From positions 50,380,332-50,444,331 of the forward strand of contig OZ024938.1 in the NCBI GenBank assembly GCA_964017235.1: 64,000 bases of DNA, written 5' to 3'. Of this stretch, positions 4,201 to 53,400 are shown one piece after another. The number at the start of each line of letters is the position of its first letter. Position 1 is the stretch's first letter. A model generated the notes under the pieces. It made no database searches. It was not told where the DNA came from and saw only the letters and a list, made by a program, of their open reading frames with translations. The stretch is from Sabellastarte sp. h YS-2021 (lineage: Eukaryota > Annelida > Polychaeta > Sabellida > Sabellidae). A program made the translations under genes and the position numbers.

Positions 4201-7200
4201 CTGTATAAAAAATAAAAACATTAACTGTTTTTGAATATATATAGTTTGTAATACAAAAGGATGTGTGAATTCATTTGGAATAATAAAAAGTAGTAGTACA
4301 CAAGTCCCATTGCATATCTTTACAAAATTAATATTCACTTTTATATATTTAAACTTTTGACTGTTATTTTTTCCAAAGTATTCATTGGCTTCCTTTGTAA
4401 TGTCATTCATAAAATTACACTTTTTAATTAGGTATTGTCTTATATGGTGGATTATTACTGTGTAGCAACAAATTTTCTCGCCTCTTTGTAAAATCTGTTG
4501 ACATTCAAGTTTGTAGATCTTATCGTTTACACTTACAGCCTAGTGGTCTAAATTTGGAGGTACTTAGTACTAAGATAGTAAATGTAATGCTGTTTGCATA
4601 CATAGTCAAATAAGGTTGCAGCCATTACCAGTGGTTCCTATCATTGACCCAGTGTTGTAGAGTAGAATAGAAGCATTCACTTAGTGCAAAATTGATAGAA
4701 ATGGTCTCTAATGTGCTACTCCAAAAAGGGCAAGTCCTAAAGCAAACAGAGGTCGTTACCCTGCAAGCCACCACTAGGTGGGGGTAATACGAAGGTGCGT
4801 ATGCCAGTTTGAAAAGGTAGGTGATCCCAAGGTCACCTGACTTACTATATAATTTAGATCTGTTTCTACAGATCTTTTCAATTTAACTTTTGTTCCTCGT
4901 TCCTGCTTGAGTCCATGTTGTGGCTTCCTTTTGAACTGAATCAGACACATAATTACTGAAACACTCCTTGCAAAAATTAAATATATATTTTCAGGCAGCG
5001 CCTTTTTGAAAAAAAAAATTTTTTTTCGTTGCAGTACACAGAGAAAAACCTACCTGCCACACCTTATGTGATTGGACTGACTGGTGGTATAGCCAGTGGA
5101 AAATCCTCAGTATGTAAACGTCTGCAGGGATTAGGTGCGGCAGTGGTCAACTGTGACAAACTGGGTGAGTACTGACTTGAATTACAATAATGTTTTGAAA
5201 CTGAGACCCCCAAAACAAAAATTCTGATTTGGTTTGTTTAGTATTAGCCTAGCTATAAAATCTTCAATTTGTCTACATGAAATGCAAACAAAAATGTACT
5301 TTATTCGTGAGTAAATGTATTGGGTATTAAGTCATTGCATATTAACAAAACACAATATTAACCATTTCTGTGCAGTATGTTATGTATTTTTCTTACAGAA
5401 TTACATACATTTTTGGATACCAGTCATTTACATCAGATTCTGTAAAGATGTAGGTCAAAACACTAGTCTTACAAATTTGATATACGGTTATGCATGGGCA
5501 AGGACAAGAAGTCTGTTCATTGTTGGCTAATGTAGAACTTAATGGTGGGACCGTTTCTAGAAGTCAAAACTGATGACTGGGGCTTTGAAATGCATGAAAT
5601 CTGATATTTTGAATGCTTGTTAATGTGCAGTAAAATTATTCGCACAGTGTACATGAGGCAGAACTTGCAACTGGAAATGGTTTTTGCGAGAAATTATTAA
5701 GTACGTAAGCATAATTTTTGCTCAATATAAAGTAAAAATGTGACATATTTTACAAAAGATGTATATTTTTTGTCATTTTGATGAAGTATCAACCATTCGG
5801 TGGTATAACATGATGACGTATTCAATAACCAGTTCCAAAATATTCTTTGCGAATTTCGTTATTTTTGCCAGAAACGAACGAAAAACCACATACCGGTTTA
5901 TCATTCACAACATTAGTAGAACTGAACTTCTGTTACCCAACTCTTCAGTTTTATGAGCATTCTAATATCTTAAAATATAATATTTTCTAAATATGTTTGG
6001 ATAACAGAAATTCTGCGTAATTAATCTTTTCATATAACCTCGTACCAAAGGTTGTTAATGCAGAGTCATGTGATCCAACATCCACCAGTGAAATAAACAG
6101 CTTTAGACTTAAGGCTTATAATGGTATAATCATTGTTGGATTTGTTAAATACTTTCAAAAAAGTATTTACAATATTTTATGAACCGTACTCTTAGCTTAA
6201 GGAGTAAAAAATCGTCTTGTAAAGTATGTAGAAACATGAAGCTCATTGCGCATTGGGATTTGTGTGAGTGTATTGGCCCTCGGATCCCCCCTGACTTGGT
6301 ATAAATTTTGATTGTTATGCTTGACTTTGTTTCACACTGAACTTCATAAGATGTGAATTTCACATTTCTTACTCTTTACAGACACGATGACAAAAGTTGT
6401 GGTTTTCACTAGGGCTGCAAACGGTTACCCGAGCCTCGATAGGTGGTCTTTACTTTTACTCAAGTCCATTTTATCTACTGGACTTGTCACAGCATACTGT
6501 ATCATTGCCTGCGAAACGAAACTTTTATTGCGTTAATACATCCTATCCAATGGACAATTGCTAAACCGGTCGGCGCAGACCGGCCCGCCAAACGCCAGAA
6601 AAAGACGTCCTGTGTTTCCACCGGCTGGCCGGTCCCAGTACTGTGCATTCGCAAGGTGGCGCATGGTATTTACTTCCTGTCTAGACAACATGACGTCATA
6701 GCATCTTTTTCGTTTGGCGCGTGTACTGTGCAGACGTGTTTTCAACAATCTCCAGATATTTTAAAGGAAAGTGTGCATTATGACGGATTTTATACCTTAT
6801 TTGCAAAGAATTTATTGTAAAAGTGTTACCTTCATATCAAGCACGGATATACATCGAGAAATCTGCTGGAAACGCTCCCTAGTTGACTCAATTTAGTGTT
6901 GATGATAGGGCAGTAATCTACGAGAATATGAAGGCAGCCATTTTCTAGTTTCCTCCCATTCAACAATGGTGTTGTTAGGGGCAGATCGACAATATTTAGA
7001 AATATAATGGATATACTACTTACAAGGTAATTTTATCCGTGTTTTTTGTTTGAATGTACCTGCTGTGACCTTCCAGCTACAATCACCATAGAAACGTCTT
7101 TTCTAGTACTACAAATAGAAATCACGGGAAACTTCAGTCTACGTAGTTTTAACACTGTTAAGAAGGAATTCCCCCAGCAAGATGCATTCTTCATCTTCAG

Positions 7201-8521
7201 AGCGCACTGGTACCGACTTCTCTGCTGTATAGCATCAGTCACACCAGCCTAGCTCGAGTATTCAGTGTTTCTTCATCAGAAGCAAGAGATGAATTCTTCA
7301 GATTTCTTCAGAGCGCACTGGTCCAGACATCTTTGCTTTAATGCATTAGTCGACCGGCAAGCTCGTAGTCAGCCGACCTCACCTAGTATTTACATAGAAG
7401 AACTTCATCTTTAATCACTCTCAGTCCCACCCTTGTGGACCCGGCACTTGTGTCGGTAATAAGGGCAGTGGATGGCCAGGAAACTGGTTTGAGTGTACAG
7501 CCGGCTGAGAAGAAGAACCGACTCCAGACCGGCCAGGAATTTCATCTACAGAGCGCACTTGTCCAGGGTTCTCTGCTTTAAAAGCATCAGCCTACCGACC
7601 ATCTCAAAAGAACGCGACCTCTGACGTCATATCCAGTCAGCCAATCGCGTGTCCTTCTGACCCATCACGAAGCAGGTCACGTGTTTTCACCGACCTCAGA
7701 GGTCGGAAGTGCGTTCTTTCAGAACTCACGTCTACTGTATTCCAGTCCCTGCCTTGCAGACCCGGCCTGGTTGTCGGTAGTGGGGTTTGGTGGACTGTAA
7801 AGTTGCCAGCAAGCATCACACCAAGAACGCGAATACTGACGTCATCCCCAGTTAACCAATCGCGTGTCCTCCGACCAGTCACGAAGCTGGTCACGTGGTT
7901 TCACCGACCAGGTCACGAAGTACATCACGTGATTCACCGAACAGGAAGGTCGGAAATGGTCGGAAGATCCGACCAGGTCACGAAGCTGATCGTCATCTGC
8001 AATCAGCCAATCACGTTGTCCCTCCGACCAGCAAGCTGGTCACGTGACACACCGACCAACATTTGTTTCTAAATATAGCTCACAAGGGCTTCCCCAGCAA
8101 CTGTCAAATCTACAAATAAGACGTGCGTTCAAAGATAGTTGTAGAATTGTTTTTCAACAACTGGTTACAAAGTGACTCGACCAGTACCGGCTATACAGCC
8201 TTGTACACTTGTTTTCAACAACTGGTTACAGAGTGTACCGGCTATACAGCCTTGTACACTTGCTTCAACAACCGGTTACAGAGGAATTAATGGAGGAAAC
8301 TGAATTCAACACAAGATAGTTGTAAACTTCATTCAGCAACTGGTTACAGGATGTACCTACGGTCTACACAGCCTTGTACACTTACCTCAACAACTGGTTA
8401 CAAGTGTACCGACTGGTACTGGCTACACAGCCTTGTACACTTGCTTCATTCTATGGGTTACAAGTCTACTAACAGGGTGTTGGCTACACAGTCCTTACTG
8501 TAGTGCTTCAACTCAACTGGG

Positions 8522-8581
<60 letters not shown>

Positions 8582-11500
8582 GGCTAAATCTAGACCAGTA
8601 GCTGTCGAAATTCGTTGGTGACCCCAACCTGCCAGTTTTTGCCAGTTACAAGAATTACTGGTTACAGTACAGTACCGGGTATGGAGTCCGGGTACTGGAC
8701 AGAGTTGCCTAAGGTTAATTGGGTTACAGAGAATTCTTAAACTGGTCAGTGATCTTGATGATAGGACAGTTTCCCAAGCTACTGCCAGGCAACCTTCCCT
8801 TATCACACCTCTCAACAACCTGTTATCGGTGCTGGACTTGACTGCAGAGATAATAATCAATTTTGTCATCAGGTCCGGCCAGGGGACTGACATCTCACAT
8901 ATTACAATTGCTCTGTAAATGCTGCACCTTGCAGGCTGCTGGCCCGGGGCAAAGAGTTTATTAATGTGAAAATAAGACCACAATAAAAACAGAGAGACTG
9001 TTAACCTGGATCATTGTCACCAGACCGGACCAGTGTCCGGAGGGACAGAAAATATTGTCAGAATACCAAATGTCCCAAATGTGGCACACAATCTGCCTAT
9101 AAGGTCCAGACTAAGCCCTTTTTTGGGAACTTAGGAAGCCTTGGGGACTGGACTTTAGGTAGTACAACTGTTGAAGGAGGGATACCTACGTCCATATACC
9201 TATACAAGAACAATCCAGGAAATGCCTGAGATTTCACATCCAAGGTCGGGCATACCAACTCAAGGCCCGGCCATTCGGGTTGTCCACAGCACCTTTTGAG
9301 TTCACCGTGATACCAAGCAGGTGAAATTGATGGCCATACACAAGGATTTAAGAGGCCACCAGTACCTAGACGGCTAGTTGGTGAGAGCCAGATCCCACCA
9401 GGCTTGTCTCCAAATACACAGGAACTAGTAAATAATGTGTCAGCAACTGGGTTGGCTAATGAACTTAGAGAAATCAGAGCTGGAGCCTAATCAAGACTTT
9501 GATTTTGTAGGCTACCAGTTTCGACTTCAGGTCTGATCGGTTCCGACCGACCCTGGACTGGGTACAGAACCTTCAAGAGACTGTTAAAACTGCTATCCCT
9601 ACCGGCTTGCCCGGTCCGGGAATTCATGTCCTTGATAGGTTACTAACATCTACAGAAAAGCATGTTAATCTAGGCAGACTTCATATGAGACCCATACAGT
9701 GGCATCTCAAAAAAAAAACAGCTGGAGGGTACCAGAATCACTGGAAAAGGTGATCCAAGTCCCCAGGTCCCTGCACCCCCATTTTCAATGGTGGCTGAAG
9801 GAAGACAATGCACTTACAGGCCAACCATTACACCCAATAAAACATGCTCTGCAAATATTTACAGACGCATCAATAGAAGGGTGGGGCGCTCACTTAGATG
9901 AGCACTTGGCAGGAGCAACCTGGTCCCCTCCGGGAAGCAAGTTGTATATATAAACTATCTAGAACTTTAAGCAGTTTTTTCTGACTTTAAAGAGTTCTAA
10001 GACCTTTGCTTAAACAAGATAGTACTTGTAGCAACTGACAACACCACAGTAGTGTCATACATAAAGGAAGGAGGAATGCGGTCGGGCCCACTTTGTGCCC
10101 TACTATGGAGAATCTTGACCTGGGTACCAGGAAACAAGTGACTCTAAGCACGACACATTCCAAGCCGGCCTAATGTGGTAGCAGACAGGCTGTCCAGGCT
10201 AGGCCAGACCATCCAAACAGTGGTTTCTCCTTCCAGAGGTCTTCCACTCTATGCAGTAGGTGGCACCGGCCCAAATAAACTTATTTGCCACGAGGTTCAA
10301 CAACAAGTCGCCTCTGTTTTGTGTCACCGGTACCGGATCCCCTGGCCACAGCAGTGGATGTGCTCAGTCGGCCATGGTAGGATCTAAAAGCATACACCTC
10401 ACCATCAGCCATATTGGGCAAAGTGGTGAAGTTGCAAGACTCCCCATGTAAGAGAATCATTCTGATTGCTCCGGGGTGGCCCAACATGCCTTGGTTTTGG
10501 GATCTAGTGGCCATGTCCAGCCACATCCTGCTGAGCCTGCCCAATCTGTCCAGCCTGTTCACAGCCATTCGATCAGATCCCTCACAGAAATCTGACAAAT
10601 CTTAATCTCCATGCAGGGCTCCTAGAGCCTCAGCAATCGAGGAGCAGGGCTTGTCTGAGGCAGTGGCAGCAAGAATTGAGGCTCCTCAAAGGGGGGTCAA
10701 TCAGATCAGTCTATGAGGCAAATGGGTCATTTTTACCAAGTGATGTATCTTTCATCAGGTGGACTTCGGGCACCACCTGTAAAGTCAGTTGTTTACTTCC
10801 TTAGGTACCTGTTTCAGGACAGGAAGTTGCAGCCCAGTACCATTGATGGTTACAGGTCGGCCATTGCTGATGGTCTAGAAATTTGCCCATCAATTTTAGT
10901 AAGGATGAAAATCTCACTCGTCTCCTGGATAGCTTCCACTGAGACAGACCCAAAGGCCGGAGGGTAACCCCTTCCTGGAACCTCTCCCTGGTTTTTGCAC
11001 CAGCTGACAAGGTTCATTTTGAACCAATTAAAGGCCTCCTTGAAGCATTTGACCTTCAAGTCAGTTTTCCTCTTGGCCCTGGGTTCGGGCAAGCGTAGAA
11101 GTGAGATACATGCTTGGCAAACAGCCCAACACCATTGATGGTTATAGGTCACTCATTCTTGATAAACTGGAAATTCACCCTTTAACATCAGTAAGGACGA
11201 AAATCTCGCTCGTCTCCTGGATAGTTTCCTGAGAGACAGACCCAGAGGCAGGAGTGGCATACCCTCCTGGAACTTCTCACTGACCGTGCACCAGCTGAGA
11301 CTCCTTTTTGATCCAATCAAGGAGGCCCCCTTGAAGCATTTGACCTTCAAGATGGTATTCCTCTTGGCCCTTGGGTCGGGCAAGTGCAAAAGTGAGATTC
11401 ATGCCTGGCAAAACTGATATATTGGACACCAATCCGATTGGTCAAAGGTGTCCCTGTATTCATCACCCAGCTTTCTATCCTAGAATCAGCTGGCCATAGA

Positions 11501-14500
11501 GTGTCCAGTGTGGCCCCTGGGGTTATAACAGCCCTGGCCTCGACTCTGGATAGATCCCTCAAGTCTGACAGGTCCCTCTGTCCGGTCAGAGCATTATGCT
11601 ACTATTTGGACAGGACCTCAGACATCAGGCAGAATAAGGAGGTGGTTTTTTGTCTCCTTTAAGAAAGGTTTCAACAAAGACATCTCACCTGCCACTATCT
11701 CCTCTTGGATCAAGCAGACTGTGATCCTATGTTATGAGCTCTCTGACCAGGAGGCCCACATTTAACATCAGGTTAAAGCCCATGATGTCAGGGCCTTTGC
11801 TGCTTCTAAGGCCTTCCAGTCGGGAGTCTCCTTAGATCCAATCTTGTCAGCCTGCCACTGAAGTCACAATACCTTCACACAGTTCTATATGAAGGGAGGG
11901 GCTTGGGCTGATTCAGAGCTTTACCAATTGGGCTCGGTAGTGGCTGCTCAGCAGATCCACAAGTGGCCCGTAGATTGAGGAGATTTGTATATATGTATAA
12001 ACAGTTTCTTCATGTACATAAGAATTAAGTGTGGCGTGCTTCCTTTGGGAGGTTTATTTGCATTCTGGGACTGAACTCATCCCTCTCTTCCCCTACCTCA
12101 GAGCAGGTCTGCAAAAGGGGGGGGGGGGGTGACGGCGGTATAGCCCCGGGTAACCGGCTGCTGGCAACCGACCATGGCCTTGCAGGGTTTCCTGACCTTA
12201 AAGTCAACCCAGGCCTGGACCTATAGGTCTCCTGACGAAGTCAGCCTAGACCGTAGGTTAAAATTTGCTATTACTTGTGAGTTCACATAAGTCCCTAGTA
12301 ACTTACCCGCCGACCAAGCGGTAGTTATTCAGCAATTGTCCATTGGATAGGATGTATTAACGCAATAAAATTGCAAATTTAATAAGTAAATTAAATTTTT
12401 ATAAGTTAATACCCTATCCAATGGACACACAAGACCCTCCCACCGACCCCGCTATCAGCTTACTAGGGGTCTAATAGTTTTAGACAATGAAAAAGATGCT
12501 ATGACGTCATGTTGTCTAGACAGGAAGTAAATACCATGCGCCACCTTGCGAATGCACAGTACTGGGACCGGCCAGCCGGTGGAAACACAGGACGTCTTTT
12601 TCTGGCGTTTGGCGGGCCGGTCTGCGCCGACCGGTTTAGCAATTGTCCATTGGATAGGGTATTAACTTATAAAAATTTAATTTACTTATTAAATTTGCAA
12701 GTTTCTGTTAAATATGCGACATTTCTACATTTTCGACTCATGATATCAGTTAAAGTTAAAGTTGTGGTTTGGGCTTAAAAATGTATAATTTACTCCCTAT
12801 TCTGTAATACCTGGTTAAATAGAAGACGTTTGTCTTTCAAAATTAGTTTACAGAAGACTTCTAATGGTAGATACTAAATCTTGCGATTACTCGAATTTGG
12901 TTGTCAAAGTGCGGGTACTCTGGGCTATTGTTTAGCACCCGTCCCAGTCCTAATTTTCACATACTTTCCGTAATTCTGCTCATACTGTGAACAGCCTCCA
13001 GCATTTTTCGCATGTGACAATGGGACAGTAGTAATAATCTACAAAAGAATGCAAGAAATAAGAATTATCTCCACAGGTCATGTGAGTTATGTCCCAGGTA
13101 CAGAAGCTTTCAAGCAGATAGCTGAAGAATTTGGTTCTGAAGTGGTAGGTTCAGATGGCCAGATTGACAGAAAATCCCTGGGTAAAATTGTGTTCTCTAC
13201 CAAGGTAAGGTACAACAGTGTGTTCTCAGATTTAATTTAAGAATAGTATTTATTATCAGAGCTTTACAGTTATTGTATCCACTGGATGCCATCCGGTAGA
13301 TACTATGGATTACACATGAGTATGCCGCAGTGTGTAGGGATTTTCCAGTTACCCCACTAGGAGGCCAAGGTATTGTAGGTAGAGTTCTCAAATTTGCAAG
13401 ATATATCCTTCATTATAAAATCTTTCCTGGGAATATTTTCGCCCCATTTTGAAAGACATGATGGCTGCCACGGGTGATTTTCGACTTTCAGCACAGTCTT
13501 TTTGGCTCTCTGGTGCAAAGAGTGTTATACTATTAGGTAGAGATCTCAAATTTGCAGGATATGTGTTTTTTTTTTTTTTTTTTTTTTGACATGCATTACA
13601 TACAAAAAGAAGAAAGTATACACATAAAAAAACAAGGACAAACGATGCACACTTTACATACTCATACAAAAAATCCAGTACAATACAGTCAAAGAAAGTA
13701 TATAGATGTACAAAATTCACAGGAAACAGTGACAGAATTTAACTGGAACAATTTCAATTACTTTAGACAAAAATAACATTTATTCTGTTGCTCTTCCATA
13801 TTCTGTATCCTTTTATTAATATAAGAAACAGTAATCAAATACTTTGTGTGTTACCTAGCGTACAACATTTCTTTTATAATTTTAAGTCTTGCTATTCAAG
13901 CTATTCCATTTTTCTTCCAAAAGCCGATAAAGGTCTCTATTAACTCCTTCAGCTTCTGCCATGAAAATGCACCTGTATATATCTAATTTTTCTTTCACAA
14001 TACTTAAAAAATAAGTAAAATTTAATTCCTGTTTATTTGTTCTACAGTGGTTTAAGTACCATTTTGCTATTGTTATTATAATATTTATCAATTTATTCAC
14101 TGATTGTGTTTCCCCTTTAGGTTTAGTTCCAAAAAGGACTTCACATATTGTAAAGTTTGGATTACTGTGAAGATCCAGAGAATTTAGCATCCATATTTCT
14201 AATTTTTCCCAAAATTGCTTACTATAACCACAAAGATATAAATGATGTTCAATTGTATAAACATGATTGCAATAATTACACAAGGGGTTATCAATAATTT
14301 TCCATTTGTAAAGGTTATAATTTGTGTTAAGTATTCTTGCAGGATATGTTCATAATTACATAATCTTGACTGGGAATAGTTTTAGCCTCATTTTGAAAAA
14401 CAAGATGGCCACCATGGGCGTTTCTTTGTCAGTCATGAAAAGTGCCTGTATCTCCTTATTATTGGTCCTAGAGGTTTGGCATGTGAAACCAACCTGTAGG

Positions 14501-21184: not shown

Positions 21185-21302
21185 TCTGCAGAATTCCAGA
21201 TGTTAACTCACTGAATATCATTACAGTGTATAATTGTTATCTTAAGGCTTTTTCTGTAGGAAAGCTGTAGAACCAGTGTCAGTCACAGTTACGTGTATGT
21301 AG

Positions 21303-21774
21303 TAGGGCTGTCACGACAAGCTGACTAATCGACAACGGTTAGAATAGTGCTGTATATCGGTATCATATTTTTAAGTACAAATAATCAATTAGAGTAAAAG
21401 ATGGCAGTAGGTCTGAATCCACCAAATATGTCCATGTTGTTACATAAAATAAGTTAAAATCTGACAACAGCCATGTTTTCTCTATTGTTTATGTATTCAT
21501 GTAAAACTGGAAGTACCATATACCTCTTATATCGCCCACTTCCTGTATGAGAAAAATGAGTCAGAAGTCACAGGAAAATGGCAAATTCAATGAATTTTAC
21601 AGATTATTGAGATATATTTTTATTTTATTTCACATATTTATCGTTTTTGTTGCCTTTTAAAATATAAAGCTTAAGATTTTTGGTAGTTGTACAAATTTGA
21701 CAGTTATTCGGTCTTGACACGAATAGTACTTGCCGATAAGCTGGCATGAAATATTTGGAGTCGTGACATCCTTA
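21303..21774. mobile_element. hAT-like MITE (TAGGGCTGTCACGAC)
   Basis: TAGGGCTGTCACGAC at the left end pairs with GTCGTGACATCCTTA at the right. TAGGGCTG ends are common in hAT MITEs. It lies just past the COASY stop, so it may sit in the 3' UTR or the flank. Confidence 0.72.
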
Positions 21775-22954: not shown

Positions 22955-22969
22955 GCACAGATGATTTCA

Positions 22970-38400: not shown

Positions 38401-41400
38401 AGGAAGGTCGGAGGTGCGTTCTTCAGAACTCACGTCTACTGTGATTCCAGTCCCTGCCTTGCAGACCCGGCTTCGTTGTCGGTAGTGGGGTTTGTGGATG
38501 AGTAGGATACTGCGCATTTGCATGTTTAAGTATCACAAAAGAACGCCACAACTGATGAGCTCCAATCAGCCAATCGCGTGTCTTTCCGACCAGCAAGCTG
38601 GTCACGTGACACACCGAACACCAAGTGTTTCTAAATATAGCTCACAAGGGCTTTCCCAGCAACTGTCAAATCTACAAATAAGACGTGCGATTAAAGAAAT
38701 TCTTTAATTAATGGAGGAAAACTACAGCAAGCTGAATTCAACACAAAAGATATTTGTAAAATTGCTTTAGCAATTGGTTACAGAGTGTACCCACCAGTAT
38801 ACCGGCTACACAGCCTTGTACACTTGCTTCAACAACTGGTTACAGAGTGTACCGGCTGGTACTAGCTACACAGCCTTGTACACTTGCTTCAATAACTGGT
38901 TACAGAGTGTACCAGCTGGTACTAGCTACACAGCCTTGTACACTTGCTTCAATAACTGGTTACAGAGTGTACCGGCTGGTACTAGCTACACAGCCTTGTA
39001 CACTTGCCTCAACAACTGTTTACAGAGTGTACCGGCTGGTACTGGTTACACAGCCTTGTACACTTGCTTCAACAGCTGGGTACAGAGTGTACCAGCTGGT
39101 TCTGGCTACACAGCCTTGTACACTTGCTTCAACAACTGGTTACAGAGTGTCCGGCTGGTACTGGGTACACAGCCTTGTACACTTACTTCAACAACTGGTT
39201 ACAGAGTGTACCGACTGGTACTGGCTACACAGTCTTGTACACTTGCTTCAACCTACCGGTTACAAAGTCTACCAATAGGGTGCTGGCTACACAGTCCTTA
39301 CTGTACAGGGCTTCACCCCAACTGGTTACAAAAAAAAAAAAAAAAAAAAAAAAAAGAAGCTGGCTAAATATAGACCAGTAGCTGTCTAATTCATTGGTGA
39401 CCCCAGCCTCCAAGTTTTTGCCGGTTACAGAAAATTACTGGTCACAGTTAAGTACCGGGTATGGAGTCCTGGTACTGGACAGAGTTGCCTAAAGTAAATT
39501 TGGTTACAGAGAATTCTTAGACCAGTCAGTGGTCTTGGGGATATGACAGTGATATGACAGTGTCCCAAGCTACTGCTAGGCAACATCTCTCAACAACCTG
39601 TTATCGGTGCTGGACTTGACTGGAGAGATAATAAAGTTTGTCATCATGTCCAGCCAGGAGTCAGACATCTCACAAATGACAATTGCTCTGGTAAATGCTG
39701 CACCTTGCAGGCTGCTGGCCCGGGGCAAAGAGTCTATTGATGTGAAAAGTTGTGTCAGCCCCACCGGACCACAGTAAGAACAGAGAGACTGTTAAGTTGT
39801 TAACTTGGATCATTGTCACCAGACCGGACCAGGGTCCGGAGGGACAGGAGATATTGTCAGGATACCAAATGTCCCAAATGTGGCACACAATCTGCCTGTA
39901 GGGTCCAGACTCAGCCCTTTTAGGAACTTAGGAAGCCTTGGGGGCTGGACCCTAGGTAGTACAATTGTGGAAGGAGGGATACCTATGTCCATATACCTAT
40001 ACAAGAACAATCCAGGAAATGCCTGAGATTTCACATCCAAGGTCGGACATACCAGTTCAAGGCCCTGCCTTTCGGTTTGTCCACAGCACCTTTGGAGTTC
40101 ATCGTGATACCAAAGGAGGTGAAATTGATGGCCATACACAAGGATTTAAGAAACCACCAGTACCTAGACGACTGGTTGGTGAGAGCCAGATCCCACCAGG
40201 CTTGTCTCCAACATACACAGGAACTAGTAAATAATGTGTTAGCAACTAGGTTGGCTGGTGAACTTAGAGAAATCAGAGCTGGAGCCCAAACAAGACTTCA
40301 ATTTTGTAGGCTACCAGTTCGACCTCAGGTCTGATCCGGTCCGACTGACTCCAGACCGGTGGCAGAACCTTCAAGAGAAAATGCTGAAATTGCAATCCCT
40401 ACCGGCTTGCCCGGTCCGGGAATTCAGGTCCGTGATAGGCTTACTAACAGCTACAGAAAAGCAAGTTCATGTAGGCCAACTTCATATGAGACTCATTCAG
40501 TGGCATCACAAACACAACTGGAGGGTCCCAGAATCACTGGAAAAGGTGATCCCAACCCCCAGGTCCTTGCACCCCCATTTACAATGATGGCTGAAGGAAG
40601 ACAATGTACTTACAGTCCAACCATTACACCCAATAAAACATGCTCTGCAAATAATTACAGACGCATCAATAGAAGGGTGGGGCACTCGCTTAGGCGAGCA
40701 CCTTGCAAGAGCAACCTGGTCCCCTCCGGGAAGCAAGCTGCATATAAACTATCTAGAACTTAAAGCAGTCTTTCTGGCTTTAAAAGAGTTCTAAGACCTT
40801 TGCTCAACAAGATAGTACTTGTAGCACTGATGACACCACAGTAGTGTCATACATAAACAAGGAAGGAGGCATGAGGTCGTGGCCACTTTGTGCCCTACTA
40901 TGGAGAATCTTGACCTGGTGTACCAGGAAACAAGTGACTCTAAAGCACGACACATTCCAGGCCGGCCGAATGTGGTAGCAGACAAGCTATCCAGGCTAGG
41001 TCAGACCATCCAAACAGTGGTTTCTCCTTCCAGAGGTTTTCCACTCTATGCAGCAGGTGGCACCGGCCCAAAATAGACTTATTTGCCGCGAGGTTCAACA
41101 ACAGGTTGCCTATGTTTGTGTCACCGGTACCGGATCCCCTGGCCACAGCAGTGGATGCGCTCAGTCGGCCATGGTAGGATCTGAAGGCATACACCTTCCC
41201 ACCATCAGCCATTTTGGGCTAAGTGGTGGAGAAGTTACAAGACTCCCCATGCAAGAGAATCATTCTGATTGCTCCGGGGTGGCCCAACATGCCTTGGTTT
41301 TGGGATCTAGTGGCCACGTCCAGCCAAATCCCACTGAGCCTGCCCAATATGCCCAACCTGTTGACAGCCATTCAATCAGATCCCTCACAGAAATCTGACA

Positions 41401-44400
41401 AACCTTAATATCCATGCAGGGCTCCTAGAGCCTCAGCAATCAAGGAGCAGGGCTTGTCTGAGGCAGTGGCAGCAAGGCTCCTCAAAGGGGATCAGCCAGA
41501 TCAGTCTATGAGGCAAGTGGGCCATTTTTACAAGTGATGTATCATTCATCAGGTGGACTTCGGGGCACCCCCTGTAAAGTTAGTTGCTGACTTCCTTATG
41601 TACCTATTTCAGGACAGGAAGTTGCAGCCCAGCACCATTGATGGTTACAGGTCAGACATTGCTGATAGACTGGGAAATTCGCCCATCAATATCAGTAAGG
41701 ATGAAAATCTCACTCGTCTCCTGGATAGTTTCCACTGAGACAGACCCAAAGGCCGGAAGGGAATCCCCTCCTGGAACCTCTCCCTGGTTTTTACATCAGC
41801 TGACAAGGGTCATTTTGAACCAATTAAAGAGGCCTCCTTGAAGCATTTGACCTTCAAGGCGGTTTTCCTCTTGCCTCTTGGGTCAGGCAAGTGCAGAAGT
41901 GAGATACATGCTTGGCAAAACAGAGATATTAGACACCAGTCCGACTGGTCAAGTGTCCCTGTACCCGTCACCCAGTTTTCTCTCTAAGAATCAGCTGGCC
42001 AAAGAGGGTCCAGACAGTGTGGCCCCAGGGGTATAACAGCCCTGGCCCCAACTCTGGATAGATCCCTCAAGTCTGACAGGTCCCTCTGTCCAGTCAGAGC
42101 ATTGCGCTACTATTTGGACAGGACCTCGGACAGAATAAGGAGGTGGTTTTTGTCTCCTTTAAGAAAGGTTTTGACAAAGACATTTCACCTGCCACTATCT
42201 CCTCTTGGATCAAGCAGACTGTGATCCTATGTTATGAGCTCTCTGACCAGGAGGGTATTAACTTATAAAAATTTAATTTACTTATTAAATTTGCAATTTC
42301 CCCCCTTTGTTTTGTTAAACTAAAATGCTTTGTCGCTAGGGTCGGATGTCAGATGGGTCGCTAGGCCTGGTTTCTCAGTATTGAGAGTATTTTACTGAAA
42401 TACCATGACAAGATTTTAACACCGTCACTTCGCTTTCCAACACATGTAATGGAAGGAAGAGTTAAAATATTAGAAACATACCAAAAATGTATAGAAATAA
42501 TAGACTTTAATCGCATATCTTGATGCATTTGCAGACTTATATACTAGTAGCGATTGTGTTGAGTAGACACTTTATAACCTCAGTCTTGCTTGACAACACT
42601 TAAAAATGGAAGGAAAACTTAACATATTGGAAACAAACCAGAAGTCTGAAAAATTTAGACACTTTTATCTCATACTGTTGTGTATTTGGGGACTTTTACG
42701 AAAATGTTAAGAGGAAACATCCAAGTTTGGTTGGGGTGTACTAAAACACGGAGTCCCAAAATAGGTACGGTTTTGCATTGGTGACCTCAGAATGTACACA
42801 TTTTTGGTACTTGCCCATCCCTAGTGAAAACATATGTACTCAACTGGAAAGAGCTCTGATTTTAGGTGATAAACTTGCACTTTTGTCTTAATAATTATGA
42901 TTGTATAATTTTCAATCCGTTAACTTTAGTATCTTTTTATTGGAGAAGTATTGTTTTGAAACATAAGTTGCAACCATTTCTACTTATATTATCTCTGAAG
43001 AAGATTGTATTTCATAAAGTATAATTTTCTGTGTTAACAAAGTTTGTTTTGTTACTGTTTATCTTATTCAATCTGCATGATTTATAACAAAGAAAGAAGA
43101 TAATCTACCCACAGGAGAAAGTCTTACTGTATTCATAGGTGTTAAAAAGGTATATTTTGATTGAAGCTGTGATAGGTAACCTAGTTACACAAAAATGGTC
43201 CAAATTCTCTGGGAAACAGACAATAAAGTGACAAAGTGGGTAACTGAAAAAATATAAGATATAGAGTTAATCAATAAAATACTTGGGTAAACCATGGTAT
43301 TCCTTCAGATTTGTTTTTCCTAGTATTAGTTTTTTTTCACATAATTTTCCTTCTTTATACAGATATTTAACATTATTTATGTAGTGTTTTGTTGACATCA
43401 TATGCCATGTTCATTTCTCTGGCACTGCCATTTGGTGAAGCCTAAAACACAGTTAATGGAATTCAGATTGGTTCTTTTCAGACGAATACCGGGTGTTGTT
43501 TTTCTAACCAAACCACTCGCTTAATTTGGGTGTTAAATTTAATTTATTATATGGAAATTGAATTAAGACGTATTATGTGTAACCAATACATAATCGCACA
43601 AGCACACGATAAAATATTTTCATGAAAAATAATGATGATAAGTGATGACCTAATTAGGACATCATAAGTTACACAGACAGTATCTTTGCAATTACTGGAC
43701 AGTCTTACATTGTGTGCACAAGAGTATATAATTTTATTTTACTTAAAGAAAATTAGTCTGTAAGAGATTTACCACTTGTTAATTAAACATATACATTTTA
43801 ATAATACTCAGCGGGGGTCATATATCCTCTACAATTTTGCCCCAGAACACAAACTTGGTAGGCAAACTTGTGATTATAGTGGAAGTAGGGTTTAGCTGCA
43901 TGACAGTAACATAGAATGGCTCTGAATTTGTCTCTAGATGTATATGCAGCATGAAGACACAATATGTGACTTGTATTTTGTAGTTGCAATGGTTGTGGCA
44001 ACTACTCAAGGACAAAAAGACAAGAGTTAAGCATCCACAAGCTGTCTCCTGCATCACCCCACAGAAGGAAAACATCACAAAGGTAAGAAATTTGTCTGAG
44101 AAATGTAGCACGTAACATTGTTGTATATGTATATTGGCGTCCATGTTTTCAAAGGATGAAACCTAAATTGCACATGATGACTTCTATTGTTAGGAATGTA
44201 ACCAACCAGTTTTAAAAGGTCCAATTACTGATCAGTCATACAAATACTGATCAGTCATACAAATATAGCACAAATCAATATTATAAGTTATGTTTCTATA
44301 GTAACTGCACACAATAAAGATAAATAAGTCAAATATCTTGCTGTATTAATTTTGCAGTACCAAATATTGTACTATTGATGTTTTGTAGTTATAAATGCTC

Positions 44401-47400
44401 CCATTTTTAGGCGGGTTGCGTGTAACAAACCTGCCTATTAGATTGATATGTTTGATGTTTGTTTCTTTCCGTCTACATTTCCCTTTCCGGACTGTAACAC
44501 AAAAACTCTTTGTCCAATCAAATCCAAACTTGATAGGGAGATAGATTACCATCATAGCTAAGTTGCTGTTGAAATTGGTGTAATTCCGTCTGTTCATTTG
44601 TCTGTTTTTCTGTCCGTCAACATTTCCATTTCCGGACTCTTACTCAAAAACGCTTTGTCCAATCGAATTCAAACTTGACAGGGAGATAGATCACCATCAT
44701 AGCTAAGTTTCTTTTGAAATTGGTGTTTTTATTGCGTTAATACATCCTATCCAATAGACAATTGCTAAACCGGTCGGCGCAGACCGGCCCGCCAAACGCC
44801 AGAAAAAGACGTCCTGTGTTTCCACCGGCTGGCCGGTCCCAGTACTGTGCATTCGCCAGGTGGCGCATGGTATTTACTTCCTGTCTAGACAACATGACGT
44901 CATAGCATCTTTTTCGTTTGGCGCGTGTACTGTGCAGACGTGTTTTCATCATCTCCAGATATTTTAAGGAAAAGTGTCCATTATGACGGATTTTCAACCT
45001 TATAGGTGGATGTTTTCAGTGTAGAAGTTTTATCTACTGATCAAGCACGGATATACAGTTAGAAATCTGCTGGAAACGCTCCCTAGTTGACTCAATTTTA
45101 TTTTGATGATAGGGCAGTAATCGACGAGAATTATGAAGGCAGCCATTTTTGCTAGTTTCCTCCCATTCAACCATTGTGTTGTTAGGGGCAGATCGACATT
45201 ATTGAGGAATTGTGGATTTACTATTTGCAGGTATTTTTATCCGTGTCTTTTGTTTTGAATGAATCTTCTGTAAAATTCCAGCTACAGTCACCATAGTAAC
45301 GTCTTTCTAGTACTAAAATGGAAATCACGGAAAACTTCATTCTACGTAGTTTTGAACCCTGCAAGGAATTCCCTTATGAAAGGTGCATTCTTCATCAGAG
45401 CGCACTGGTACAGACTTCTCTGCTGTCAAGCATCAGTCACACCAGCCTAGCTCGAGTATTTTTTCATCAGAAGCAAGAGGTGAATTCTTCAGATCTCTTC
45501 AACCGACCTCTCAAGTATTTACTACATAGAAGGAACTTTTGTCACTCTCAGTCCCACCCTTATGGACCCGGCACTTGTGTCGGTAGTAAGGGCAGTGGAT
45601 GGCCAGGAAACTGGTTTGAGTGTACAGCCGGCTGAGAAGAAGAACCGACTTCAGACCGGCCAGGAATTTCATCTACAGAGTGCACTGGTCCAGGCTTCTC
45701 TGCTTTTAAAGCATCAGCCGACCGGCCAGCTAAAAGAACGCGACCTCTGACGTCATACCCAGTCAGCCAATCGCGTGTCTTCACGAAGCTGGTCACGTGT
45801 TTTCACCGACCAGTCACGAAGTGTATCACGTGATTCACCGAACAAGAAGGTCGGAAGTACATTCTTTGCACTCACGTCTACTGTGATTCCAGTTTTTAGT
45901 TCCTGAAATTCACCTCCAGCACGCTGGTACAGACTTCTCTGCTACAAGCATCAGTCGACCAGTCAGCTCACATTTACTGTGATATAAAGAAAGAACGCGT
46001 CCAGTGGGGGCATTTCCCCGAAGTTGGTCACGTGATTCACCGACCAGGTCACGAAGCTGATCGTCATCTCCAATCAGCCAATCACGTTGTCCCTCCGACC
46101 AGCAAACTGGTCATGTGACACACCGACCAACATTTGTTTCTAAATATAGCTCACAAGGGCTTTCCCAGCAACTGTCAAAATCTACAAATAAGACGTGCGT
46201 TCAAAGAAATACTTTTATTAATGGGGGAAACCTACAGCTAGCTGAATTTTACACAAAAGATAGTTGTGAAATTTTTTCAACAACTGGTTACAGAGTGTAT
46301 CGACCAGTACCGGCTATACAGCCTTGTACACTTGTTGCAACAACTGGTTACAGAGTGTACCGGCTATACAGCCTTGTACACTTGCTTCAACAACCGGTTA
46401 CAGAGGAATTAATGGAGGAAACTGAGTTCAACACAAGATAGTTGTAAACTTCATTCAGCAACTGGTTACAGAGTGTACCTACTGGCTACACAGCCTTGTA
46501 CACTTACTTCAACAACTGGTTACAGAGTGTACCGACCGACTACCAGTTAAACAGCCTTGTGCAGTTACTTCAATAACTGGTTACAGTATGTACCGACTGG
46601 CTACCGGCTTCACAGCATTATACGGTAGCCTCAACTGGTTACAGTGTACCGGCTACACAGCCTTGTACACTGGCTTCAACAACTGGTTACAGAGTGTACC
46701 GGCTGGAACTGGCTACACAGCCTTGTACACTTGCTTCAACCTTCCGGTTACAAGTCTACAAACAGGGTGCTGGCTAGTAGCTACACAGTCCTTACTGTGC
46801 AGGGCTTCACCCCAACTGGTGACCAGTAGCTGTCTAAATTCATTGGTGACCCCAGCCTCCCAGTTTTTTGCCGGTTACAGAAAATTACTGGTGACAGTAA
46901 AGTACCGGGTATGGAGTCCTGGTACTGGACAGAGTTGCCTAAAGTAAATTTGGTTACAGAGAATTCTTAGACCAGTCAGTTGTCTTGGGGATATGACAGT
47001 GATATGACAGTGTCCCAAGCTACTGCCAGGCAACCTTCCCTTATCACACCTCTCAACCTGTTATCGGTGCTGGACTTGACTTGAGAGATAATAAATTCAT
47101 CATCATTCATCATGTCCGGCCAGGGGTCAGACATCTCACAAATGACAATTGCTCTGTAAATGCTGCACCTTGCAGACTGCTGGCCCGGGGCAAAGAGAGT
47201 CTATTGATGTGAAAAGTTGTGTCAGCCCCACCGGACCACAATAAGAACAGAGAGACTGTTAACTTGGACCATTGTCACCAGACCGGACCAGTGTCCGGAA
47301 GGACAGGAAATATTGTCAGGATACCAAATGTCCCAAATGTGGCACACAATCTGCCTGTAGGTTCCAGACTAAGCCCTTTTTGGGAACGTAGGAAGCCTTG

Positions 47401-50400
47401 GGGGATGGACCCTAGGTAGTACAACTGTTGAAGGAGGGATACCTATGTCCATATACCTATACAATAACAATCCAGGAAATGCCTGAGATTTCACATCCAA
47501 GGTCGGGCATACCAGTTCAAGGCCCTGCCTTTCGGTTTGTCCACAGCACCTTTGGAGTTCACCGTGACACCAAAGCAGGTGAAATGGATAGCCATACACA
47601 AGGATTTAAGAAGCCACCTGTACCTAGACGACTGGTTGGTGAGAGCCAGATCCCACCAGGCTTGTCTCCAACATACACAGGAACTAGTAAATAATGTGTC
47701 AGCAACTGGGTTGGCTGATGAACTTAGAGAAATCAGAGCTGGAGCCCAAACAAGACTTCGATTTTGTAGGCTACCAGTTTGACTTCAGGTCTGATCGGTT
47801 CCGACCGAACCTTCAAGAGACTGTTAAAACTGCTATCCCTACCGGCTTGCCCGGTCCGGGAATTCATGTCCTTGATAGGTTACTAACATCTACAGAAAAG
47901 CATGTTAATCTAGGCAGACTTCATATGAGACCCATACAGTGGCATCTCAAAAACAACTGGAGGGTATCCAGAATCACTGCAAAAGGTGATCCAAGTCCCC
48001 AGGTCCCTGCACCCCCATTTACAAGGGCGGCTGAAGGAAGACAATGCACTTACAGGCCAACCATTACACCCAATAAACATGCTCTGCAAATATTTACAGA
48101 CGCATCAATAGAAGGGTGGGGCGCTCACTTAGATGAGCACTTGGCAAAAGCAACCTGGTCCCCTCCGGGAAGCAAGCTGCATATAAACTATCTAGAACTT
48201 AAAGCAGTTCTTTCTGGCCTCAAAAGAGTTCCAAGACCTTTGCTCAACAAGATAGTGCCTGTAGCAACTGACAACACCACAGTAGTGTCATACATAAACA
48301 AGGAAGGAGGCATGAGGTCTTGCCCACTTTGTGCCCTACTATGGAGAATCTTGACCTGGTGTACCAGGAAACAAGTGACTAAAGCACGACACATTCCAGG
48401 CCGGCTGAATGTGGTAGCAGACAAGCTATCCAGGCTAGGCCTGACCATCCAAACAGTGGTTTCTCCTTCCAGAGGTCTTCCACTCTATGCAGCAGGTGGC
48501 ACCGGCCCAAATAGACTTATTTGCCACGAGGTTCAACAACAGGTTGCCTGTGTTTGTGTCACCGGTACCGGATCCCCTGGCCACAGCAGTGGATGTGCTC
48601 AGTCGGCCATAGTAGGATCTAAAAGCATACACCTTCTCACCATCAGCCATATTGGGCAAAGTGGTGGAGAAGTTGCAAGACTCCCCATGTAAGAGAATCA
48701 TTCTGATTGCTCCGGGGTGGCCCAACATGCCTTGGTTTTGGGATCTAGTGGCCATGTCCAGCCACATCCCGCTGAGCCTGCCCAATCTGTCCAGCCTGTT
48801 CACAGCCATTCGATCAGATCCCTCACAGAAATCTGACAAATCTTAATCTCCATGCAGGGCTCCTAGAGCCTCAGCAATCGAGGAGCAGGACTTGTCTGAG
48901 GCAGTGGCAGCAAGAATTGAGGCTCCTCAAAGGGGGGTCAATCAGATCAGTCTATGAGGCAAATGGGTCATTTTTACCAAGTGATGTATCATTCATCAGG
49001 TGGACTTTGGGCACCACCTGTAAAGTCAGTTGTTTACTTCCTTAGGTACCTGTTTCAGGACAGGAAGTTGCAGCCCAGTACCACTGATGGTTACAGGTCA
49101 GCCATTGCTGATAGTCTAGAAATTTGCCCATCAATTTTAGTAAGGATGAAAATCTCACTCGTCTCCTGGATAGCTTCCACTGAGACAGACCCAAAGGCCG
49201 GAGGGTAACCCCTTCCTGGAACCTCTCCCTGGTTTTTGCACCAGCTGACAAGGTTCATTTTGAGCCAATTAAAGGCCTCCTTGAAGCATTTGACCTTCAA
49301 GGCAGTTTTCCTCTTGGCCCTGGGTTCGGGCAAGCGTAGAAGTGAGATACATGCTTGGCAAACAGCCCAGCACCATTGATGGTTATAGGTCACCCATTGT
49401 TGATAAACTGGAAATTCACCCTTCAACATCAGTAAGGACGAAAATCTCACTCGTCTCCTGGATAGTTTCCTCAGAGACAGACCCAGAGGCAGGAGTGGCA
49501 TACCTTCCTGGAACTTCTCACTGGCCGTGCACCAGCTAAGACTCCTTTTGATCCAATCAAGGAGGCCCCCCTTGAAGCATTTGACCTTCAAGACGGTATT
49601 CCTCTTGGCCCTTGGGTCGGGCAAGTGCAAAAGTGAGATTCATGCCTGGCAAAACTGATATATTGGACACCAATCCGATTGGTCAAAGGTGTCCCTGTAT
49701 CCATCACCCAGCCTTCTATCCTAGAATCAGCTGGCCATAGAGTGTCCAGTGTGGCCCCTGGGGTTATAACAGCCCTGGCCTCGACTCTGGATAGATCCCT
49801 CAAGTCTGACATGTCCCTCTGTCCGGTCAGAGCATTATGCTACTATTTGGACAGGACCTCAGACATCAGGCAGAATAAGGAGGTGGTTTTTGTTTCCTTT
49901 AAGAAAGGTTTCAACAAAGACATCTCACCTGCCACTATCTCCTCTTGGATCAAGCAGACTGTGATCCTATGTTATGAGCTCTCTGACCAGGAGGCCCACA
50001 TTTAACATCAGGTTAAAGCCCATGATGTCAGGGCCTTTGCTGCTTCTAAGGCCTTCCAGTCGGGAGTCTCCTTAGATCCAATCTTGTCAGCCTGCCACTG
50101 AAGTCACAATACCTTCACACAGTTCTATATGAAGGGCGGGGCTTGGGCTGATTCAGAGCTTTACCAATTGGGCTCGGTAGTGGCTGCTCAGCAGATCCAC
50201 AAGTGGCCCTTAGATTGAGGAGATTTGTATATATGTATAAACAGTTTCTTCATGTACATAAGAATTAAGTGTGGCGTGCTTCCTTTGGGAGGTTTATTTG
50301 CATTCTGGGACTGAACTCATCCCTCTCTTCCCCTACCTCAGAGCAGGTCTGCAAAAAAGGGGGGGGGGCGACGGCGGTATAGCCCCGGGTAACCGGCTGC

Positions 50401-53400
50401 TGGCAACCGACCATGGCCTTGCAGGGTTTCCTGACCTTAAAGTCAACCCAGGCCTGGACCTATAGGTCTCCTGACAAAGTCAGCCTAGACCGTAGGTTAA
50501 AATTTGCTATTACTTGTGAGTTCACATAAGTCCCTAGTAACTTACCCGCCGACCAAGCGGTAGTTATTCAGCAATTGTCCATTGGATAGGATGTATTAAC
50601 GCAATAAAATTGCAAATTTAATAAGTAAATTAAATTTTTATAAGTTAATACCCTATCCAATGGACACACAAGACCCTCCCACCGACCCCGCTATCAGCTT
50701 ACTAGGGGTCTAATAGTTTTAGACAACGAAAAAGATGCTATGACGTCATGTTGTCTAGACAGGAAGTAAATACCATGCGCCACCTGGCGAATGCACAGTA
50801 CTGGGACCGGCCAGCCGGTGGAAACACAGGACGTCTTTTTCTGGCGTTTGGCGGGCCGGTCTGCGCCGACCGGTTTAGCAATTGTCCATTGGATAGGGTA
50901 TTAACTTATAAAAATTTAATTTACTTATTAAATTTGCAAAATTCTGTCTGTTCGTTTGTCTGTATGTCAACATTTCCGTTTCCGGACTCAAAAATGCTTT
51001 GTCTAATAAAATTCAAACATGACTGGGAGATAGATCACCATCATAGCTAAGTTGCTTTCAAAATTGGTGTAATTCCGTCAGTTTGTTTGTCTGTTTTTTT
51101 TTGTCCGTTTATCCCTCAACATTTCCCTTTCAGGTCTGTAACTCGAAAACTCTTCGTCCAATCGAATCCAAACTTGACAGGGAGATAGATCACCATTATA
51201 GCTAAGTTGCTGTTGAAATTGGTGTTTTTATTACGTTAATACATCCTATCCAATGGACAATTGCTTTTCCGGTCGGCGCAGACCGGCCCGCCAAACGACA
51301 GAAAAAGCCATCTTATATGAGCGCATAATGCCCTCACAAGCTGGCCGGTCCCCTTGTGCGTTCGCTAGGTGGCGCATAGTACTTCCTTGCTGTCTAGGCA
51401 ACGTGACGTCGTAGCATCTTTTTCGTTTGGCGCGCACCTTGTGCAGAAGGAAAATTGTGTTAGTGATTTATTTTGGGAAGTATTCGTAGAATATTTCGTG
51501 AACAGTGTTTTTATTGTGTGCGAATCGTCTTTAGAGTGCTTGGATCCCAATGTCTTCACCAGGACAACGCAGAGGAGTATGTGGCCATGCTATGGCAGGT
51601 TTTGATTTACACGCACACTGTGCACGTTGTAGGGACAAACTGAAGGGTGACGACCCGTGTGTGAGTAAAAAGCCTTGTCCTCACTGTGACGTTCTTTCTG
51701 AAGATCAAAAAGCGCAGTTATCTGTCCCTGTTTATCAAAAGAAGAAGGAAAAACGTGAGCAGAAAAATATGGACAAGAACTCAGATAATTCGACGGAAAC
51801 CTTAGTGGACCCTGCCTTAGTTTCCGTCGTGGGTGTTATTCCCTCTGACAAGAAATCTGTTAAGTCTCCAGAACCTGCCATTAACAAGGAAAAATCTAAA
51901 AAGAAGCACTCTACACCTTCCAAGAAGGCGTCTACTGATGAGAAACTTGAGGCTATGGACCAGAGATGGTCTGAACGTTTCAGTCGTCTGGAAGCGTTCT
52001 TTGTTTCAAAGTCTCTTGAAGGGTCACACCCGACCTTTCAAACCATTAAGATGCCGACTAAAACTCCTCCAGCCGGTGCAGTTAAGGGTTCTGAACCCTT
52101 TCTTCAACCTCAAGCTTCCGACCACACTGCAGGCCGGCCTGGATTAGCTACCGACCAGACTTGTGTACCCAAGAATGACCGGCTTCAGAGTAGTGATATT
52201 CAACAACCGACCAACCGAACTCTCTCTGATCTGTCACCGACTGCCCCTCACCAGGTTCCAGGTCCTTCTGGTTGGCAGTCCAGTCAGAATAGTGACAATG
52301 ATATGGATACTGATTTGGATGGTGATCTCTCCCACCATCAGACAGGGCATATAATAGAAGATGAAGAATTCTCTGATCCGGATAATGACATACCTAATGC
52401 TGATACCGACCAGGCTCTCTCTGAAGAGCAGTCTTATCGAGAAACAGTTAGAGGAATCAGGTCCTTTATGGGCTGGAACCACGTACCGGATATTGATAAC
52501 ACCTCTTCAGCTACAGATGACAATCCCTTTGCAACTTCCACCCAACAGCCTTCAGGCAGAGTGAGTGTTAAGTTACCTACTGACGAATGGTTATGTAAGA
52601 AAATGGACAAACTAAATGTCACCTTAGTGGAAGGGTATCCTTCAAGAGCTTCAGAGGCCGGTGGCCTTCAGAAGGACCAATTTGTCAAGGTCGGTAGATC
52701 ACAGTCAAAGTGGTACGGGTTACATCCAAATCAAGAGAAATCTGTGGAGTCGGTTACCTTCTGGAGTAGTGAACCAGCCAAACTCAACTCTAGTTACAGC
52801 AGAGTGGCAAGATCTTCAGGTTTATCAACCCCAGCTCCGGCCTCACGCCCCATTAGCCAGGATACTCTTAGACGATGGGAGAGGTCGGCTTGGGAGTCAA
52901 CCTACATATGCAATCAAGTGGCAGGCTTTAGTCGGTGCCTTAGTAAGGTACAGTCCAGTATGCAAACACCGGTACGGCTACAGATGAGTTACAGTACCTA
53001 CTGAAGTTCAACTCCAGTATAACCAAATGCATGGCCAAAACCATGGAACATTTATCAGAGTTTGTGTTTATTAACGTGGCCAACATGACACTAGCCAGAA
53101 GAGATGCTTACTTGGCCCATGTCAAAGTCGGGATCAAACATGACACCTTGTCAGCCTTGAGACAGGCTCCTATCCACTTGGATAAACTTTTCCCAGAGCA
53201 AATGTTAAAGAAGGCTGAGGAAGATATTGCTCAACATGAAAATAAAAATCGTCCCTCTCAATCTTCCACTGGCTTTAGGAAAGACCGTTTCCACCCTTAT
53301 CAGAGGAATGATAAAACCAGGGATCAAAAATCTGGAAAACCGGCCTGGAAGATTATTGGTGGTTTCCAGCAGAAAAGGAAGGGCAAGAATTCCAATTTTT

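What the first reader, a model, noticed from the sequence alone, without database searches (positions are those of the whole stretch)
6523..50939. A DIRS subfamily that seems to have spread while already broken
Copies 1 (6523-12700), 2 (36967-42296) and 3 (44727-50939) share a 5' third unlike that of copy 4. Copies 1 and 3 are nearly identical over about 3 kb including their decay, yet sit in unrelated flanking DNA (a hAT-like MITE versus a tandem array). Shared decay with different flanks points to movement of an already broken copy, probably helped by an active relative such as copy 4. Duplication of the locus would have copied the flanks too.
Basis: partly seen in the sequence, partly recalled or inferred. 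Interest (0 to 1): 0.72.

Follow-up and report, generated by a model that had tools for sequence, protein, structure and literature searches.

The report
Broken DIRS retrotransposons that kept spreading
Three of the four mobile elements in this stretch belong to a large family that lost its own protein genes yet went on copying itself around the genome, most likely by borrowing the proteins of intact relatives.

Summary
Copies 1-3 are DIRS1-like elements without gag, with a ~321-bp deletion in the reverse transcriptase (RT) and many frameshifts. Copies 1 and 3 also share a 292-bp duplication and 19 of copy 1's 33 pol indels; copy 2 shares 10. The genome holds 1194 RT-deletion junctions and 1165 duplication junctions (controls 0). 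Of 22 insertion sites examined (231 pairs), 5 pairs match on both flanks, all of them inside tandem arrays. An uninterrupted paralogue of copy 1's target lies in the same window. Differences between copies 1 and 3 fall evenly on codon positions (24/21/23), but copy 1 v copy 4 gives 150/92/311: copies 1 and 3 diverged without coding constraint while the family multiplied. Tips and internal complementary region stay nearly identical to those of coding relatives. Likeliest helpers: a clade with open 883-886-aa pol frames and ends closer to copy 1. Copy 4's gag lies in two frames. The 5' third was also exchanged between lineages. Trans-mobilisation itself is inferred. New variant of a known kind: a large non-autonomous DIRS family recording its own stepwise decay.

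The parts
6523..12700 (+). Copy 1: non-autonomous DIRS element, both tips present, no gag, decayed pol/YR
6523..6734 (+). Copy 1 left inverted terminal repeat (80% to copy 4's; first 199 bp 87.7% to a clade A left end)
6735..9064 (+). Copy 1 non-coding 5' third (minisatellite-like repeats, A-tract); no match to gag of copy 4 or clade A
9065..11960 (+). Decayed pol/YR remnant of copy 1 (33 indels relative to copy 4, 27 frame-shifting)
9166..9197 (+). Region of the ~321-bp RT deletion junction shared by copies 1-3; 1194 genome-wide matches to a 32-base junction pattern
10830..11412 (+). 292-bp tandem duplication in copy 1 (10830-11121 / 11122-11412); 1165 genome-wide matches to its junction
12332..12428 (+). 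Copy 1 internal complementary region: complement of left tip followed by complement of right end
12486..12700 (+). Copy 1 right inverted terminal repeat plus right extension
36967..42296 (+). Copy 2: same family, no 292-bp duplication; deletion at 42254/42255 removes the internal complementary region and most of the right terminal repeat but leaves the right extension
44727..50939 (+). Copy 3: same family, shares the duplication and 16 frame-shifting indels with copy 1
49071..49653 (+). The same 292-bp duplication in copy 3
50571..50667 (+). Copy 3 internal complementary region, 97/97 identical to copy 1
51226..57421 (+). Copy 4: coding relative (RT/RNase H frame 53209-55767 open, YR frame 53439-56681 open; gag in two frames, 51535-53001 and 52947-53435)
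57042..57138 (+). Copy 4 internal complementary region
57801..58050 (-). Stretch holding an uninterrupted paralogue of the repeat that copy 1 is inserted into; it reads across the insertion point
44456..44726 (+). 145-bp tandem array left of copy 3; related units lie between copies 3 and 4 and right of copy 4

Best explanation
Copies 1-3 belong to a large non-autonomous DIRS1-like family mobilised in trans. Shown: a DIRS lineage lost gag and part of the RT; its sampled descendants inherit that deletion, add frameshifts, and one branch adds a 292-bp duplication; copies of these stages sit at separate sites. Shown: the cis tracts (left tip, right tip with extension, and a ~97-bp internal complementary region) stay almost identical to those of coding DIRS elements while the rest diverges. 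Inferred: the element's RNA is reverse transcribed by proteins of a coding relative, most likely the clade with open 883-886-aa pol frames (clade A); the internal complementary region templates closure into a circle; the helper's tyrosine recombinase inserts the circle at a short TTT/ATT-like core without target duplication. Inferred: the 5' third is exchanged between lineages by template switching or gene conversion.
For: Lesions: 33 indels v copy 4, 27 frame-shifting; 28 of the 33 are in 17-19 of 19 loci, 19 are in copy 3, 10 in copy 2. Whole-genome counts: RT-deletion junction 1194, duplication junction 1165, reversed-pattern controls 0. On contig C1, 49 of 89 exact RT-deletion junctions have an exact duplication junction within 4.5 kb downstream. 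Flanks: 5 of 231 pairs of 22 sites match on both sides, all in tandem arrays. Empty-site paralogue reads across copy 1's insertion, score 136 v maximum 55 of 200 shuffles. Right-flank triplets: TTT 12 and ATT 4 of 22, TTT background 4.5%. Codon positions: copy 1 v 3 24/21/23 (P 0.9); copy 1 v 4 150/92/311. Cis tracts, copy 1 v clade A: internal complementary region 96/97, right tip 62/62, left tip 44/46, against 86.7% with 104 gap columns in the 300 bp before that region. Clade A: 41 of 55 rows have 883-886-aa open frames, 40 of them without a stop; 466 matches to a clade A gag pattern; the sampled ends are 83-88% identical to copy 1's left terminal repeat, copy 4's are 78-80%.
Against: No expression or transposition data. 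Copy 1 v copy 2 differences keep a slight position bias (58/39/68, P 0.018), so the lineage may not have been free of coding constraint for all the time since copies 1 and 2 split. 40 of 89 exact RT-deletion junctions on C1 have no exact duplication junction nearby; mutated junctions and copy-2-like copies could explain this but were not separated. L015 and L025 match at the same array position on both flanks; their bodies and 5' types differ, but a duplicated locus is not excluded for that pair. In an end-to-end alignment the rest of the left terminal repeat is only slightly closer to clade A than to copy 4 (134/149 v 131/149). The YR match in copy 4 is below Pfam's cut-off and no methyltransferase was found.
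Confidence: 0.9

Rival explanations
1. Copy 4's own clade is the helper.
For: Copy 4 has open pol and YR frames and tips close to copy 1's (left 42/46, right 61/62).
Against: Gag is interrupted in copy 4 and in 4 of 4 sampled relatives. Its gag region has 13 hits at 96% or more, copy 4 included, against 466 for the clade A gag pattern (the two searches differ in method and threshold). Its terminal repeat is 78-80% identical to copy 1's v 83-88% for clade A, and its internal complementary region 94/97 v 96/97.
Confidence: 0.12
2. Broken copies move as DNA circles cut out and reinserted by a helper recombinase, without reverse transcription.
For: Nothing here shows an RNA intermediate directly; insertion sites fit a recombinase.
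Against: High copy number implies replication. The internal complementary region, needed in the accepted DIRS replication model (recalled), is kept nearly unchanged.
Confidence: 0.1
3. The copies are old and immobile; gene conversion among dispersed copies makes them look young and alike.
For: The 5' third is mosaic: the 3' tree rejects the type II 5' group as one clade (p-AU 1.5e-5).
Against: Over 1100 dispersed copies with the same junctions, and empty-site evidence for copy 1, need insertion events. Conversion alone does not create new sites.
Confidence: 0.04
4. Spread by segmental duplication of one locus.
For: 5 of 231 pairs of sites match on both flanks; L015 and L025 do so at the same array position.
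Against: 226 of 231 pairs do not match on both flanks; the five that do are all array insertions. Copies 1 and 3 share no flank.
Confidence: 0.02

Closest known systems
DIRS1-like retrotransposons (PMC3266345, passages read)
   Same: Inverted terminal repeats, right extension, internal complementary region near the 3' end; coding relatives carry gag-like, RT/RNase H and YR frames. Insertion of copy 1 left no target duplication.
   Different: Copies 1-3 have no gag, lack part of RT, and have a non-coding 5' third; they cannot be expected to move on their own.
SIRE / VIPER of trypanosomes (PMC6681497, passages read)
   Same: A non-autonomous derivative of a tyrosine-recombinase retroelement.
   Different: SIRE is a short element of terminal pieces of VIPER, which has split direct repeats; this family is about full length (~6.2 kb) with inverted repeats and keeps its decaying pol.
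LARD-type and Dasheng/RIRE2-type non-autonomous LTR elements (recalled; Dasheng seen only in a reference list)
   Same: Large non-coding retroelement spread by an autonomous partner with matching ends.
   Different: No LTRs; ends and insertion are of the DIRS / tyrosine recombinase kind.

Membership tests
DIRS1-like retrotransposon | Inverted terminal repeats | tested here: met
   Copy 1 left v right 96.4% over 196 bp; copy 4 97.0% over 203 bp. Copy 2 has lost its right repeat.
DIRS1-like retrotransposon | Internal complementary region matching both ends, near the 3' end | tested here: met
   9 of 9 examined: copies 1, 3, 4, one clade A element and five fetched loci. Missing by deletion in copy 2 and half missing in L013.
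DIRS1-like retrotransposon | Right extension beyond the terminal repeat | tested here: met
   Present at the right ends of copies 1-4 and in the fetched loci with a right end
DIRS1-like retrotransposon | No target-site duplication; short core at the site | tested here: met
   Empty-site paralogue for copy 1; triplets in 22 sites
DIRS1-like retrotransposon | RT and RNase H domains | tested here: met
   Copy 4: RVT_1 E 2e-22, RT_RNaseH E 9e-7; only fragments in copies 1-3
DIRS1-like retrotransposon | Tyrosine recombinase | tested here: inconclusive
   Copy 4: Phage_integrase E 4e-4, 20.6 bits v cut-off 27.1
DIRS1-like retrotransposon | Methyltransferase domain | tested here: inconclusive
   No Pfam match in copy 4's pol; no other test made
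Non-autonomous element mobilised in trans | No intact coding capacity in the examined copies | tested here: met
   RT deletion in 19 of 19 loci plus copies 1-3; no gag match in copies 1-3
Non-autonomous element mobilised in trans | Many copies with the same lesions at different sites | tested here: met
Non-autonomous element mobilised in trans | Movement by a helper shown directly | not testable with these tools
   Needs an assay
LARD / TRIM | Long terminal direct repeats | tested here: not met
   Ends are inverted repeats

The most novel reading that the evidence does not exclude
DIRS elements show little or no cis-preference: a broken lineage can persist as its own evolving parasite, adding lesions stepwise and swapping 5' modules between lineages, so that successive broken 'masters' rather than intact elements drive much of this DIRS load.
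Probability: 0.45. Interest if true: 0.7.

Novelty: new variant of a known kind. Interest (0 to 1): 0.58.

Why it matters
If right, it is a natural test of which DIRS sequences are needed in cis: the tips and internal complementary region persist while gag, RT and the 5' third do not. It also shows a tyrosine-recombinase retroelement sustaining a non-autonomous family of over a thousand copies. A bivalve survey reports DIRS in low copy number (PMC10294476, passage read); searches for coding sequence could miss a family like this. That this genome is a bivalve's is my recollection and was not tested. The nested lesions give a relative clock for successive source copies.

Tried and rejected
Rejected: reading the minisatellite plus A-tract of the 5' third as a captured polyadenylated RNA. 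The tract is missing in copy 3, is 50 in copy 1, 26 in copy 2 and 18-33 in four of five loci looked at (none of 15 or more in L027), so it behaves as a simple repeat. Rejected: using the 96-97% identity between a copy's two terminal repeats as its age; the left 680 columns, terminal repeat included, are identical in 9 of 12 type I copies while copy 1's own two repeats differ. Rejected: copy 2's 3' deletion as a spread lesion; 6 of 6 sampled relatives lack it. Without result: Pfam on four ORFs of the 5' regions; Rfam on copy 1, two matches on the internal complementary region far below gathering scores; a plasmid search. Left open: a preference for tandem arrays. 9 of 22 sites are inside arrays v 12% of bases in 20 random pieces (binomial P 6e-4), but v 3 of 20 midpoints the Fisher P is 0.06, and copies 3 and 4 are not independent. 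Not in print, as far as searched: no paper of the held library has 'non-autonomous DIRS', 'nonautonomous DIRS', 'defective DIRS' or 'DIRS non-autonomous'; some searches gave listings only, from which I read passages of six papers with answered 'find' calls on DIRS or bivalve repeats and two more. Subscription journals and Repbase were not searched.

The triplet counts did not change. One search also showed that L013 is 3'-deleted like copy 2 (it keeps the right extension only), so 17 of 20 fetched loci have both complete tips, not 18.
Full report
Setting. The window lies in an unnamed eukaryotic genome of 1.786 Gb in 647 contigs. Size and contig pattern recall a venerid clam, which I did not test; a published Mercenaria assembly is 1.86 Gb in 19 chromosomes (PMC8905726, passages read).

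Observation. Self-comparison of the window finds four DIRS-like copies. Exact ends are 6523-12700, 36967-42296, 44727-50939 and 51226-57421. Copies 1 and 3 match at 94.7% over 4165 aligned bases and share a 292-bp tandem duplication that copies 2 and 4 lack. One-kb flanks of copies 1 and 3 do not match each other beyond the ~30-bp right extension, which belongs to the element. An uninterrupted paralogue lies within 57801-58050 on the minus strand and reads straight across the insertion point.

What the elements are. They have inverted terminal repeats, a right extension, and an internal complementary region made of the complement of the left tip followed by the complement of the right end (copy 1 at 12332-12428). 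These are structural marks of DIRS1-like elements (PMC3266345, passages read). Copy 4 keeps open RT/RNase H and YR frames (the YR match is below Pfam's cut-off). Copies 1-3 have no gag match to copy 4 or clade A (beyond chance-level E-values). They lack about 321 bp that include the first part of the RT domain.

Shared decay. Relative to copy 4, copy 1's pol has 33 indels, 27 of them frame-shifting. Copy 3 shares 19 (16 frame-shifting) and copy 2 shares 10 (8 frame-shifting), all 10 also in copy 3. Of the 33, 28 are in 17-19 of the 19 fetched loci compared; the other five are in 16, 14, 9, 1 and 0. The one in 1 of 19 is the duplication, whose exact placement varies with the alignment; its junction is visible in all 19 loci and in copies 1 and 3. 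The lesions are nested: the RT deletion and 8 frameshifts in copies 1-3; the duplication and 8 more frameshifts in copies 1 and 3; more in the copy-1-like group. In small samples, 5 of 5 informative copy-2-like loci lack the duplication (L064 does not cover it). Of six copy-3-like pieces, four have it, one lacks it and one gave no match.

Scale. The junction of the RT deletion occurs 1194 times in the genome and that of the duplication 1165 times, at up to 2 mismatches, with 0 for the reversed patterns. On contig C1, 49 of 89 exact RT-deletion junctions have an exact duplication junction within 4.5 kb downstream on the same strand. The core of the internal complementary region occurs 11,535 times, so most elements with this core are neither this family nor the coding clade described below.

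Flanks and insertion. Of the 20 fetched copies, 17 have both complete tips. L013 keeps its left tip but has a 3' deletion that leaves only the right extension; L026 has a right but no left tip; L028 has neither. Among 22 sites (18 loci and copies 1-4) 36 of 231 pairs show some flank similarity and 5 match on both flanks: L010/L015, L010/L025, L015/L025, L011/L020 and copies 3/4. All of these are insertions inside tandem arrays. L015 and L025 match at the same array position; their bodies and 5' types differ, so I read them as two insertions. The first three flanking bases on the right are TTT in 12, ATT in 4, AAT in 3 and others in 3 of 22; the TTT background is 4.5%. Copies 3 and 4 are inserted at the same place in a 145-bp unit.

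Spread without coding constraint. Differences between copies 1 and 3 fall evenly on codon positions (24/21/23, P 0.9). Copy 1 v copy 4 is strongly biased to third positions (150/92/311). The coding control is weaker: copy 4 v four relatives gives 43/39/92 in sum, but these share copy 4, and one of the four (L031, 10/9/11) shows no bias. Copy 1 v copy 2 shows a slight bias (58/39/68, P 0.018), so the earliest part of the lineage may have kept some constraint (all).

Cis tracts. Between copy 1 and a clade A element the internal complementary region is 96/97 identical, the right tip 62/62 and the left tip 44/46; the 300 bp before that region align at 86.7% with 104 gap columns. Copy 1's pol body is 75.6% identical to copy 4's, while their internal complementary regions are 94/97. 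This is the pattern expected of an element kept going by proteins from elsewhere.

Helper. A protein search with copy 4's pol gave 55 rows. Six sampled right ends of this clade (A) are 83-86% identical to copy 1's left terminal repeat and 75-77% to copy 4's; one left end is 87.7% to copy 1's. Copy 4's repeats are 78-80% identical to copy 1's. An end-to-end alignment of the rest of the left repeat gives a smaller gap (134/149 for clade A, 131/149 for copy 4). The one clade A left end carries a continuous 719-aa gag-like frame, and a pattern from it has 466 matches. Copy 4's gag lies in two frames, and gag is interrupted in four of four relatives. Clade A is thus the better helper candidate; this is inferred.

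Mosaicism. The first ~680 columns fall into two types ~10% apart, each nearly uniform. Loci of both types can share nearly the same 3' body: copy 1 and L017 are 99.88% alike there. The 3' tree is ladder-like and rejects the seven type II loci as one clade (p-AU 1.5e-5; the types were defined from the 5' identity before the tree was made; the bootstrap had not settled). So the 5' third was replaced within an already broken lineage, by template switching or gene conversion.

What is known. Non-autonomous tyrosine-recombinase elements have a precedent in SIRE, a short derivative of VIPER (PMC6681497, passages). The phrases tried for non-autonomous DIRS gave no paper in the held library. I rate this a new variant of a known kind: an about full-length, high-copy, progressively decaying non-autonomous DIRS family.

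Noticed in passing
window 44456-44726, 50940-51225, 57422-57643: Copies 3 and 4 are inserted at the same position of a 145-bp tandem-repeat unit, about two units apart, in the same orientation; seven of the 18 fetched insertions also sit inside 133-169-bp arrays.
   Followed up: partly
genome, contig C1 18737962-18740340: Three internal complementary region cores spaced exactly 1172 bp apart, which may be a short or tandem non-autonomous derivative.
   Followed up: no
whole genome: 11,535 matches to the internal complementary region core, far more than the 1194 RT-deletion junctions and 466 clade A gag signatures account for.
   Followed up: no
window 42254-42296; L013 7304-7340: Copy 2 and L013 each have a separate 3' deletion that removes the right terminal repeat but leaves the right extension at the insertion junction.
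   Followed up: partly
L030 363-990 and 1627 onward; L019 7651 and 8048; L013 7340 and 7414: DIRS ends lie close to each other in some loci, suggesting clustered insertions.
   Followed up: no
L033-L052: Tandem arrays with periods of 50 bp or more cover 12% of 20 random 1.2-kb pieces, so such arrays are common in this genome.
   Followed up: partly
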